Numbered from the stretch's first letter, positions 13,215-17,263 are shown. The stretch: 64,000 bases of DNA from Spartobacteria bacterium (GCA_003134785.1 PLCN01000002.1:372219-436218), one strand, 5' to 3'. Numbers and translations: made by a program. Notes: generated from the sequence alone by a model not told the origin.

Positions 13215-14558
13215 ATGATCTCGACCCGCATCTTCGTTGCGACGGCTTTCCTGCTTCTTCTCACGAACACATCACTCCTGGCCAATGGCGGCGCATGGCA
13301 AGCCGGTGTTCCTACCACGGGAAACGGAGCGGCCTCAGATCGGAAGAAGGCGACAGACGTCACGATTGAGGAGGAGAATCTCACGATTGATCTGCACCAG
13401 GAATTCGCGGCGGCGGAAGTGCGATACCGGATGCGGAACACCGGCCCGCAGGTCGAGCAGGATTTCTTTTTTCCCGTCGAACGCTGGGCCAAGAACGAGG
13501 AGAATAAGGTAAGCGATCTCGAGGAGTATCGGGTCGCGGCGGACGGGACGGAGCTGAAATCGGAAACCGTGGAGGCGAAAGGGGAGAAGCCCAAGCCGGT
13601 GACCGATAAGCATTGGGGGGAATTTCCGCCGGCGGTCAGGCTCTGGAAGAAATCGCGGATTCCATTCGCGCGCGGGCAGACTCGGGAATTGTCGATTCGA
13701 TATCGCGCCGACTATGCCTTAATCGAAAGTTCAGTGTCGGACGACGGACATGTCGGGGAAGCACTTTTCTACTATTCGCTGTCGCCGGCTGCGACGTGGA
13801 AAGGCCCGATCGGTAAGGGCAAAATCACCGTCAACGTCGTCCATCCGCGGCCCGAGGAAGTGACTATTTCAAAACCGAAGGATCGTTTTAAGAAGGTCAA
13901 CGCGACCCAATCAGTCTGGGATTTTCGCGACCTAAAACCGACGCTGGCGGACAATATCAAAATCGTTGTCCATCCCGCTTACGATACGTATCCCGGCCGG
14001 CACGAATTCGGCGCCAAGGATTATGAGGGCCCTTTCCAATTTCGGGCGGAATACATCATCCAGGGCAACCGCTCCTTTATCGAACACAGCGACTACGACG
14101 CAGTGGCCAGCTCGACCTTAAAGCCCGACGGCGAGCACAAGTACGACGTCGAGAATATCAAGTACGTCGAAACCTACGGAACTTGGGCGGAAGGAGTGGA
14201 GGGTGACGGCATTGGTGAAAATATTGCGATGAAGGTGCATCGGCCGCTGCCGCTGGATGCGATCATGATCATGCCCGGCTATCGCGCCGAGGACGAAGAG
14301 CTTTGGGGCAAGAATAACCGGATCGCGGAAATGGAAGTAACGCTGAACGGCGAACACACTTTCACTGCCGCGATTCCAGACGAAAAATTTTCCAAGGCCT
14401 ATCCGATTCCGGTGCGGAATTACTCCAAGCCGGTCGAGACGGTGAAGCTCACAATTAAAGGTGTCCATCGCGGCAGCGCGGCTCGAGACACGTGCATTTC
14501 GGCGGTCGATCTCCGGGCCAGGCTTTCGAAAAAACCGACGATTCAACCGGCGCGGTGA
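13215..14558 (+). CDS. Exported protein with C-terminal NADase-type glycan-binding-like domain
   Basis: About 447 residues. It starts with the signal ISTRIFVATAFLLLLTNTSL and cleavage near LLANGG. The N-terminal half is beta-rich, with EVRYRMRNTGPQVEQDFFFP, resembling DUF4424-type exported proteins. The C terminus has paired sugar-binding-like strands, VRNYSKPVETVKLTIKGVHR then DTCISAVDLRARL. The DTCISE-like motif is typical of the small beta-domain called NADase-type glycan-binding. The gene overlaps the next one by four bases (GTGA), implying coupled translation with the CapA fusion. Function is unknown; an envelope or extracellular location is likely. Confidence 0.68.
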   Translation: MISTRIFVATAFLLLLTNTSLLANGGAWQAGVPTTGNGAASDRKKATDVTIEEENLTIDLHQEFAAAEVRYRMRNTGPQVEQDFFFPVERWAKNEENKVSDLEEYRVAADGTELKSETVEAKGEKPKPVTDKHWGEFPPAVRLWKKSRIPFARGQTRELSIRYRADYALIESSVSDDGHVGEALFYYSLSPAATWKGPIGKGKITVNVVHPRPEEVTISKPKDRFKKVNATQSVWDFRDLKPTLADNIKIVVHPAYDTYPGRHEFGAKDYEGPFQFRAEYIIQGNRSFIEHSDYDAVASSTLKPDGEHKYDVENIKYVETYGTWAEGVEGDGIGENIAMKVHRPLPLDAIMIMPGYRAEDEELWGKNNRIAEMEVTLNGEHTFTAAIPDEKFSKAYPIPVRNYSKPVETVKLTIKGVHRGSAARDTCISAVDLRARLSKKPTIQPAR

Positions 14559-17263
14559 CGATTCGCTGGATCGCACTGATGTTGGCCGTCGCGTTTGCGC
14601 GCGGTGCTTTCGCAGCTTCGGCCGCCGTGCCGATCTACATCGAAGACAGCCACGCCGGTTCGTTCTACTGGCTCGCTGAGCATCTCGACCTCGATGAGGA
14701 GTGCACGCTCATCCACTTCGATGCACACAGCGATGCCTCGGCCATATTCGATTCGGATGAGCTGCGCAGCCGACTAAGACGCGTTGGTTCGTTGGAGGAA
14801 CGCCGGCAGTTATTGGATCACTGGCGGGAAGGTGGCGTGATCCAATGTTTCAATTGGATCGAGCCGCTGATGCCGGCGCCGATTTCAAATCTGATCTGGG
14901 TGCGCAGCGAGAAAGTGGGGAAAGCCAAGGCCGGTGCACTCGAGAAAGAAGCGGTCGAGTATCTTGACGGGCAACTGGAAGCGTCGCCCCGATCGGCTGG
15001 TTCGCTGGGGAAGCGCTGCCGCGTTTCCGGCTTAGGCGATCTTCGCGCGAACATTAAAGAGGGCACACCTGTTGTGATTACGATCGATCTCGATTATTTC
15101 GCGGAGGTCCAACCAGGTGCCCGGAGCGCGGCGTTCGAGCGGGTGTGGAAATTTGTCGCTGGCTGCCGCAACCTCCGCGCGGTCACATTCGCGATCTCGC
15201 GACCGTATCTTTCGGGCGACGATCAAGCAGACGCTCTAGTGCGGCTGGCACTCACGGCATCCCTTTCGTTGCCAACGGCGCGAATCCAGTTCGAGCCTTT
15301 CGAAAAAGTTGGGAACGATTGGTCGTTGAGGGCCCGGGAGTTGCGCTCGAAAAATCGCGAAGTTCCGGCGTTTGGCCTAACGAATGCATCCGAAGAATTC
15401 CGTGCCTTGATCCTGGCGAATCGGGACCGCATCAACGTAAGCAAGGACGCGGCCGCCTGGGAAAAACTTCTCGGACAATGGGAGAACGAAGCCCCGGCAG
15501 TTCGGCTCGCGGTCAAGGATCACGACCCGTCGACCGACAACATCTGGCGCGTGCCTGTTTCGGAACCAGTTGAGTTGGAGCTGCAAACGGAACCGTGGGA
15601 TGCGGCGGTGCAGTGGGTGGAATGGATCGCGGTGGCGCCGGAAAATGTCCGGTGCAATCTCACCTCGGAACGCGCGGACGAACCTGGCTTTGCCCGCGGT
15701 GCGCCGCCGCGGCCGCGGTGGAGGGAAACCAAATTACGCAGCAAAGATGGTGTGTTGCCGATTGATGCGCTGCGGGACTTCTTCGACCGGAAGACTGGCT
15801 GCGGCTCGATCCGTTTGAAAGCGCGAGCGGAAATAAACCATCACATCCGCGAGACGCCGGCGATCGAGTTCCGCCGCTTCACTGGATCGGGATTCCGGGC
15901 CGCCATTTTGGAGCAATTCGGGCTGCCTTATCTTTTCGGGAGCGGTGAATTGCGCGACGGCACCAGCACGGGGCCAGAGACGGGTTGGGGTGCGGATTGC
16001 GCAAATTTTGTGGTCTACGCGTTGCGACGGCAAGGCCGGCAAATTCCGTGGTGCAATCCCAAGCAGCTCCGGAGATACCTGGAGCCGGTGGCGCAAAACG
16101 CGGAAGCCGGCGCGGTGAAATTCAGCGAGGAAGATATGGCCGAGGGATTGGTCGTTCATTTCGGAAGTCACGTCGCGGTGGTGATGGAAGACCGGCCACC
16201 GATCGGAACACTTGATCGGAACGATCTGGTCGCACATCAGTTGGAGGGCGTCCCGGAAATGCTTTCGTTAGGTGAACTGCTGGCGAAGCGAAATAATCCG
16301 CGCTTCGATGTGTTGCGCGTTCCGCATCATCAACATCAGGCCGATCTGCTCGTCGGAGGCGACGTAATGCTGGGCCGCTCGGTGGGAGAACAGATCCAAG
16401 CTGGCGCAGATCCCTTTGCGGACGTTCGCGAATACCTGGACCGCGCCCGGTGGAAATTCGTGAATCTTGAATGCGTCGTCTCTGACAAAGGCGAAGCGAC
16501 AGCCGGGAAGCCGTACTGTTTTCGCGCTCCCGCTCAGGCGACTGGAGTCCTCACGTCTGCGCGAATCAATGCGGTCGGCCTAGCCAATAATCATGCAGGC
16601 GATTTTGGAAGTGACGCGCTGATTGATTCGATTGCGCGCTTGAAGACGAACGACATCGCGGTCGTGGGCGCGGCAGAAACGCGGGAGCTGGCTTATGCGC
16701 CGCTTTTTTTCACTGCGCGCAACGGGCAAAGAGTGGGACTCATCGCGTTGAGTGATCTGGAGAACGAGCAGGTTGGCCCGAAGGTGGCGACCGCGTTTGA
16801 TCGCGAACGCGTAGCCAGTGCAATCGCGGAAGCGCGCGCCGGCGCGAGCTTTGTCTTGTGCTTCATGCACTGGGGAGATGAGAACACGCCGCGCGTGACT
16901 GACCGCCAGCGCGAGCTTGCGCGCTGGTTGATCGATCACGAAGTCGATGCGGTGGTCGGCTGTCATTCACACTGCCTGCAGCCGCTCGATTTTTATCACG
17001 GCCGTCCGGTAATCTACTCGTTAGGCAACCTGGTCTTCGATGGCGCTCCGGGACTCGAAAGCTGGAACCGGGGGGCACTTCTTGAAGTGGACGTCGGCCG
17101 TTATGGAACCGAAGAACCGTCCATCCGCCTGGTCCCTGTGCGACTCGACTCGCGTGGTTTCCCCCAGGCGTCGGATGACGATCAGGCGCCAGGGAAAATT
17201 CCAGCCACGGCCGGCGCTGCTTTCTCACGCAACCGAGTGCAAGGCGCCTCGAAGAAACGATAA
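14555..17263 (+). CDS. Three-domain fusion: UPF0489 + NlpC/P60-like + CapA-like
   Basis: About 902 residues from GTG 14555, with signal peptide TIRWIALMLAVAFARGAFA. Residues about 25-215 match UPF0489 (arginase-like fold): LIHFDAHSDAS and VITIDLDYF are its metal-site motifs. Residues about 455-550 look like an NlpC/P60 peptidase: GWGADCANFVVYALRRQG with the catalytic Cys and HFGSHVAVVMED with His. Residues about 598-870 are a CapA/PgsA-type metallophosphatase domain: GDVMLGRSVG, FVNLECVVSDKG, ANNHAGDFG, MHWGDEN and GCHSHCLQPLDFYHGRPVIY. CapA domains act in poly-gamma-glutamate or capsule handling and NlpC/P60 domains cleave peptidoglycan or gamma-glutamyl peptides, so an envelope gamma-peptide or capsule role is inferred. 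The 3' end overlaps the convergent acyltransferase by 82 bases. Confidence 0.8.
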   Translation: MTIRWIALMLAVAFARGAFAASAAVPIYIEDSHAGSFYWLAEHLDLDEECTLIHFDAHSDASAIFDSDELRSRLRRVGSLEERRQLLDHWREGGVIQCFNWIEPLMPAPISNLIWVRSEKVGKAKAGALEKEAVEYLDGQLEASPRSAGSLGKRCRVSGLGDLRANIKEGTPVVITIDLDYFAEVQPGARSAAFERVWKFVAGCRNLRAVTFAISRPYLSGDDQADALVRLALTASLSLPTARIQFEPFEKVGNDWSLRARELRSKNREVPAFGLTNASEEFRALILANRDRINVSKDAAAWEKLLGQWENEAPAVRLAVKDHDPSTDNIWRVPVSEPVELELQTEPWDAAVQWVEWIAVAPENVRCNLTSERADEPGFARGAPPRPRWRETKLRSKDGVLPIDALRDFFDRKTGCGSIRLKARAEINHHIRETPAIEFRRFTGSGFRAAILEQFGLPYLFGSGELRDGTSTGPETGWGADCANFVVYALRRQGRQIPWCNPKQLRRYLEPVAQNAEAGAVKFSEEDMAEGLVVHFGSHVAVVMEDRPPIGTLDRNDLVAHQLEGVPEMLSLGELLAKRNNPRFDVLRVPHHQHQADLLVGGDVMLGRSVGEQIQAGADPFADVREYLDRARWKFVNLECVVSDKGEATAGKPYCFRAPAQATGVLTSARINAVGLANNHAGDFGSDALIDSIARLKTNDIAVVGAAETRELAYAPLFFTARNGQRVGLIALSDLENEQVGPKVATAFDRERVASAIAEARAGASFVLCFMHWGDENTPRVTDRQRELARWLIDHEVDAVVGCHSHCLQPLDFYHGRPVIYSLGNLVFDGAPGLESWNRGALLEVDVGRYGTEEPSIRLVPVRLDSRGFPQASDDDQAPGKIPATAGAAFSRNRVQGASKKR

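What the first reader, a model, noticed from the sequence alone, without database searches (positions are those of the whole stretch)
14555..17263. UPF0489, NlpC/P60-like and CapA-like domains in one exported protein
Three domain types linked to arginase-like metal folds, peptidoglycan or gamma-glutamyl cleavage and poly-gamma-glutamate handling are joined. An upstream glycan-binding-like protein is translationally coupled. Together with the acyltransferase and transglutaminase-like genes this may be a new envelope polymer module.
Basis: partly seen in the sequence, partly recalled or inferred. Interest (0 to 1): 0.6.

Follow-up and report, generated by a model that had tools for sequence, protein, structure and literature searches.

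The report
Exported three-enzyme protein with arginine-tailed partner
Soil and gut bacteria of one phylum export a single protein that fuses three enzyme folds and always travels with a sugar-binding-like partner whose very last amino acid is almost always arginine, which suggests that the fused enzyme recognises or chemically changes that protein end.

Summary
A 902-aa exported protein (GTG 14555..17263, +) joins a UPF0489/peptide-arginase fold, a beta-sandwich, an NlpC/P60 domain and a CapA (PGA_cap) domain. All three catalytic residue sets are invariant across Verrucomicrobiota orthologs down to about 28-30% identity. The predicted structure is confident (pLDDT 87, pTM 0.86). Its closest solved folds are OspR, a peptide arginase (Z 17), and MslH, a lasso-peptide C-terminal epimerase (Z 32).

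The acyltransferase and transglutaminase-like genes are not conserved partners, and 13 genomes carrying the protein lack CapC and any above-cut-off PgsB.

The real unit is two genes. The upstream DUF4424-like/discoidin protein co-occurs with the fusion, usually overlaps it, and is lost with it. It carries a tail absent from enzyme-less paralogs. That tail ends in arginine in 34 of 35 distinct complete C-termini, with six arginine codons and three stops.

Best reading (inferred): the fusion is an exported processing enzyme for the partner's C-terminus. Its arginase-like domain acts on the terminal Arg, most simply giving ornithine. NlpC/P60 and CapA then process or attach it, perhaps to peptidoglycan. 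The reaction itself is untested.

The parts
13215..14558 (+). Partner gene c1 (447 aa): signal peptide, DUF4424-like domain, discoidin/CBM32-like domain, C-terminal tail ending in Arg
   Evidence: NADase_discoid 4.9e-29, NADase_transloc 5.8e-21, model pLDDT 84.4, conserved upstream of c0
13293..14000 (+). c1 N-terminal DUF4424-like domain (approx. residues 27-262)
   Evidence: Weak DUF4424 hit; 4g2a Z 18.8, 199 aligned, 2.9 A
14070..14525 (+). c1 discoidin / F5/8C (NADase_transloc) domain (approx. residues 286-437)
   Evidence: CBM32/F5-8C rows Z 12-14; 7ji1 E 6.4e-11
14526..14555 (+). c1 C-terminal tail SKKPTIQPAR; terminal Arg codon CGG 14553-14555
   Evidence: Arg terminal in 34 of 35 distinct complete C-termini, six Arg codons and three stop codons, fixed L437-P441-R447 spacing; no strand or helix assigned after residue 436
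14555..17263 (+). c0: exported fusion protein, 902 aa
14624..15451 (+). c0 UPF0489 / peptide-arginase-fold domain (residues 24-299); ligands H33 (14651-14653), D56/H58/D60 (14720-14734), D178/D180 (15086-15094)
   Evidence: OspR 8brp Z 17.1, 212 aligned; ligands aligned to OspR; invariant
15491..15880 (+). c0 beta-sandwich linker domain (residues 313-442)
   Evidence: AF2 strands 315-442
15881..16330 (+). c0 NlpC/P60-like domain (residues 443-592); Cys482 (15998-16000), His539 (16169-16171), His561 (16235-16237)
   Evidence: NLPC_P60 in 9 of 17 orthologs, best 2.7e-5; triad invariant
16331..17185 (+). c0 CapA / PGA_cap metallophosphatase-fold domain (residues 593-877)
   Evidence: PGA_cap 1e-61; MslH 8itg Z 32.4, 271 aligned, 2.5 A, 25% identity

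Best explanation
The two overlapping genes form one exported enzyme-substrate pair. The fusion protein (c0) is a multi-active-site processing enzyme for the C-terminal tail of its partner (c1), a DUF4424-like/discoidin protein that may bind surface glycans. Inferred steps: (1) both proteins are exported through signal peptides; (2) the tail L-x-x-x-P-x-x-x-x-x-Arg enters the peptide-arginase-like pocket and the terminal Arg is hydrolysed to ornithine plus urea; (3) the NlpC/P60 and CapA domains act on the same end or on its acceptor. The most attractive version of step 3 is an NlpC/P60 acyl-enzyme formed on a gamma-D-Glu-containing peptidoglycan stem and resolved by the new ornithine amine, which would anchor c1 to the wall in a sortase-like way. 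Shown here: the fusion, intact active-site residue sets, predicted folds, co-occurrence and loss of the pair as a unit, and the near-invariant terminal Arg. Not shown: any catalysis, and that c0 touches c1.
For: c1 is the only conserved neighbour of c0 and lies directly upstream, usually overlapping. In 387 phylum genomes, full-length c1 occurs in exactly the eight genomes with full-length c0. In the same genus the pair is missing together between preserved flanks (G007), or only c1's first ~89 residues remain (G006). c1 ends in Arg in 34 of 35 distinct complete C-termini, using all six Arg codons and all three stops, with no indels in the tail; this includes tandem c1 copies only 47-60% identical and two loci where c1 and c0 lie 6.9 and 8.9 kb apart (L052, L053). 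c1 paralogs without c0 lack the tail and end in R, K or Q. The tail motif is not found above chance elsewhere in six genomes. The closest solved relatives of two c0 domains act on ribosomal peptides: OspR turns Arg into Orn (PMC10028609) and MslH binds and epimerises a C-terminal residue (PMC10406935). All six OspR metal ligands are invariant in c0.
Against: No reaction or contact between c0 and c1 was tested, and no complex was modelled. Characterised peptide arginases act on Arg inside short cytosolic precursors, not on a terminal Arg of an exported folded protein. OspR's guanidine-stabilising Glu11, beside His12, is Ser/Asn in most orthologs here. G081 keeps c1 with its Arg although c0 is nearly gone. 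In G085 the copy next to c0 ends in Lys and c0 carries a nonsense codon; both could be assembly errors. The wall-anchoring step is speculation from NlpC/P60 chemistry.
Confidence: 0.4

Rival explanations
1. The Arg tail is only a docking peptide: it holds c1 in a pocket of c0 (possibly the arginase-like or CapA cleft), so that c1's discoidin domain brings the enzyme to its glycan or wall substrate. c0 then acts on that third substrate and c1 is not modified.
For: Explains the near-invariant terminal Arg, co-occurrence and joint loss equally well. A discoidin/CBM32 fold suits a targeting subunit. Most orthologs replace OspR's Glu11 by Ser/Asn.
Against: The full six-ligand arginase metal site is invariant, which mere peptide binding would not need.
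Confidence: 0.25
2. c0 is an exported degradation or scavenging enzyme for peptides or wall fragments: NlpC/P60 cuts gamma-glutamyl or peptidoglycan peptides, the arginase-like domain removes urea from Arg-containing or guanidino products, and CapA removes another group. c1 is its sugar-binding helper.
For: Three hydrolase-type active sites with intact residues; signal peptides; hosts include the gut species Akkermansia glycaniphila.
Against: Does not explain the near-invariant terminal Arg of c1. No transporter, peptidase or sugar gene is conserved nearby.
Confidence: 0.2
3. One reading: part of a new envelope polymer (poly-gamma-glutamate-like) module with the acyltransferase and transglutaminase-like genes.
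For: PGA_cap domain at 1e-61; NlpC/P60 relatives include gamma-glutamyl hydrolases (general knowledge).
Against: CapC 0 of 13 and PgsB over cut-off 0 of 13. Acyltransferase and transglutaminase-like genes are not conserved partners and persist without the pair.
Confidence: 0.06

Closest known systems
Peptide arginases (UPF0489 / PF12640; OspR, FlmR, OhkR, BipC)
   Same: Fold of residues 24-299 (OspR Z 17.1); six metal ligands; [quoted passage not shown]
   Different: Exported, fused to NlpC/P60 and CapA, no short precursor-peptide gene recognised nearby; Glu11 replaced by Ser/Asn in most; sequence score below Pfam and NCBIfam cut-offs.
MslH lasso-peptide epimerase and CapA/PgsA (PGA_cap)
   Same: C-terminal domain is PGA_cap (1e-61); MslH is the closest solved fold (Z 32.4); residues matching Asp11, Glu44, Asn87, His88, Asp91, His259 and His295 are kept.
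   Different: MslH metal ligand His261 is Gly774 here, and His804 of the usual CapA GxHxH motif is kept where MslH has Gly. No CapB/CapC partner.
NlpC/P60 peptidases (for example RipA)
   Same: PYxFG and DCANF motifs; Cys482-His539-His561 invariant; helix and strand order consistent.
   Different: Longer insertion between the two His; scores below the Pfam cut-off in the window protein; embedded in a fusion.
Sortase / exosortase C-terminal sorting systems
   Same: Proposed resemblance only: a dedicated exported enzyme acting on a conserved protein C-terminus.
   Different: No sortase fold, no TM/LPxTG or PEP-CTERM signal; the tail is found on a single partner, not many proteins.

Membership tests
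Peptide arginase (UPF0489) | Arginase-type alpha/beta/alpha fold closest to OspR | tested here: met
   8brp Z 17.1, 212 aligned, 3.5 A, 18% identity
Peptide arginase (UPF0489) | Six metal ligands (H, DxHxD, DxD) | tested here: met
   H33, D56, H58, D60, D178, D180 invariant and aligned to OspR
Peptide arginase (UPF0489) | EEH(N/H)EAF motif with Glu next to the first His | tested here: not met
   Here mostly (E/D)(S/N)HA(G/E)(S/T)F; Glu11 position is Ser/Asn in most orthologs
Peptide arginase (UPF0489) | Sequence score over curated cut-off | tested here: not met
   UPF0489 16.3 vs 27 bits; NF052474 17.1 vs 350
Peptide arginase (UPF0489) | Arg to Orn activity on a peptide | not testable with these tools
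   Needs an assay
NlpC/P60 | Cys-His-polar catalytic triad | tested here: met
   C482, H539, H561 invariant in all orthologs aligned
NlpC/P60 | Sequence score over Pfam cut-off | tested here: inconclusive
   Window 21.5 vs 23 bits; 9 of 17 orthologs match, best 2.7e-5
NlpC/P60 | Papain-like fold by structure search | tested here: inconclusive
   Confident model with a fitting element order, but the domain was not searched alone
PGA_cap (CapA) | Pfam PGA_cap match | tested here: met
   209 bits, E 1e-61; 17 of 17 orthologs
Poly-gamma-glutamate synthase (CapBCA/PgsBCA) | CapB and CapC partners | tested here: not met
   CapC 0 of 13; PgsB over cut-off 0 of 13
MslH epimerase | NCBIfam equivalog cut-off | tested here: not met
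   60 vs 700 bits
MslH epimerase | Ca ligand His261 | tested here: not met
   Aligned residue is Gly774; G774 invariant in A1 and nearly invariant in A2

The most novel reading that the evidence does not exclude
A previously undescribed protein C-terminus modification system of Verrucomicrobiota: a single exported enzyme converts the terminal Arg of its operon partner to ornithine and uses its NlpC/P60 site to join that end covalently to peptidoglycan, a sortase-like attachment by unrelated chemistry.
Probability: 0.15. Interest if true: 0.85.

Novelty: new variant of a known kind. Interest (0 to 1): 0.6.

Why it matters
Known peptide arginases work in the cytosol on small natural-product precursors. 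An exported version fused to a wall-type peptidase and a CapA domain, and tied to a full-size protein with a near-invariant terminal Arg, would extend this chemistry to protein maturation at the cell surface. It gives a direct testable prediction (a 42 Da loss at one known residue) in cultured species such as Akkermansia glycaniphila and Persicirhabdus sediminis. It could also give CapA-type domains, whose chemistry is poorly known, a defined substrate.

Tried and rejected
PF12640 search of the own genome found nothing, and no control rang either, so it is uninformative. Proteobacterial and other CapA homologs (up to 41% identity) were checked for separate neighbouring UPF0489-like or NlpC-like genes using profiles made from this family: none found. 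MslH membership was rejected on His261 (Gly774) and score. PGA synthesis was rejected by absent CapC/PgsB. Acyltransferase/transglutaminase linkage was rejected by synteny. Chance overlap of the two genes as the cause of the terminal Arg was rejected because codons and stops vary and the Arg persists where the genes are apart. The VIA list is filled by the CapA domain, so the NlpC domain's fold was not independently ranked.

Full report
Observation. The reported frame is real. Open frame 14492..17263 (+) encodes 923 codons. The likely start is GTG at 14555, overlapping the stop TGA (14556-14558) of the upstream gene, and gives a 902-aa protein with a clear signal peptide. I call it c0, and the upstream gene (13215-14558) c1.

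Domains. Pfam finds PGA_cap at 1e-61, with NLPC_P60 and UPF0489 below cut-off. NCBIfam points to the peptide arginases and to MslH, both far below cut-off. On 17 orthologous sub-domains, NLPC_P60 matches 9 (best 2.7e-5) and the peptide-arginase model matches 6 (best 2.7e-4). The best PDB sequence match of the N-terminal profile is OspR, at a weak E of 0.21, but its metal ligands line up. The AlphaFold model is confident through most of its length (pLDDT 87.2, pTM 0.86). VIA-align gives OspR Z 17.1 for residues 24-299 and MslH Z 32.4 for residues 593-877. MslH is the only close PGA_cap structure in that list, so its rank does not imply the same reaction.

Active sites. Alignments of c0 from many Verrucomicrobiota show all six arginase ligands, the Cys-His-His triad of NlpC/P60 and the CapA residues invariant at 28-73% identity. 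The CapA domain keeps most MslH catalytic positions but has Gly774 instead of ligand His261 (alignment; for the paper), so it is not an MslH-type site.

Distribution. Full-length c0 was found only in Verrucomicrobiota in the GTDB contig scan, including Akkermansia glycaniphila, Persicirhabdus sediminis and Prosthecobacter. Lower-ranked hits matched the CapA part only.

The real unit. Clustering genes of 17 loci shows one conserved neighbour: c1, directly upstream, usually overlapping or within a few bases. In a draw of 387 phylum genomes, full-length c1 occurs in exactly the eight genomes with full-length c0; among relatives the two again go together, apart from fragments. Same-genus G007 has the flanking genes, acyltransferase, transglutaminase-like gene and reductase in order, with c1 and c0 missing apart from the c0 3' end that overlaps the acyltransferase. 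G006 retains only the first ~89 residues of c1. L041 has the pair without the acyltransferase.

c1. It has a signal peptide, a DUF4424-like domain (4g2a, Z 18.8) and a discoidin/CBM32-like domain (Z 12-14), followed by a short tail. In 34 of 35 distinct complete C-termini the last residue is Arg, at a fixed distance from an invariant Leu and Pro. All six Arg codons and all three stop codons occur. It holds in tandem c1 copies only 47-60% identical and where c1 and c0 are separated by several kb (L052, L053). c1-like paralogs of Akkermansia species without c0 end about where the tail would begin, in R, K or Q. The tail motif is not enriched elsewhere in six genomes. The single exception (G085) coincides with a nonsense codon in its c0, which may be coincidence or sequencing error. 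These sequences are related, so the counts are not independent events; the strength of the case is that the Arg persists at 28-35% overall identity.

Interpretation. A near-invariant terminal Arg on the obligate partner of an enzyme with an intact peptide-arginase-like site suggests that the tail is recognised by c0, and the simplest chemistry is Arg to Orn. MslH, the nearest structure to the last domain, also binds a peptide C-terminus. What NlpC/P60 and CapA do is inferred; attaching the tail to peptidoglycan through the ornithine amine is an attractive but unsupported option. The main rival is that the tail is only a docking peptide. No complex was modelled and no activity measured.

Poly-gamma-glutamate. 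CapC is absent from 13 c0-bearing genomes while B. subtilis rings as control. PgsB is nowhere over cut-off.

Literature. Held papers describe UPF0489 peptide arginases in the maturation of ribosomal peptides (PMC10028609, PMC12703449, PMC12707348). No held paper found describes this fusion; subscription papers are not covered.

Verdict. A real, conserved and so far undescribed (in the held library) fusion and gene pair, built from known folds. The mechanism is unproven but sharply testable.

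Noticed in passing
17182-17263: The 3' ends of c0 and the convergent acyltransferase gene overlap by about 80 bases; in G007 the only part of c0 left is the end that overlaps this gene.
   Followed up: partly
L121, L124, L125 (G392, G085, G358): Tandem c1 copies (47-60% identical) next to one c0; five of the six copies end in Arg.
   Followed up: partly
L052 and L053: c1 and c0 are 6.9 and 8.9 kb apart in an uncultured Verrucomicrobia genome and in Akkermansia glycaniphila, yet the tail is kept.
   Followed up: no
L127-L138, L147: Many genomes of the genus that includes Akkermansia glycaniphila carry a c1-like discoidin protein without the tail; most of them lack c0.
   Followed up: partly
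L186 (G081:C45:12500-17500): c1 intact with its terminal Arg, but c0 reduced to about 31 recognisable residues.
   Followed up: partly
L059-L065: CapA proteins of Rubrivivax and other Proteobacteria are 39-41% identical to the c0 CapA domain, with no UPF0489-like or NlpC-like neighbours found.
   Followed up: partly
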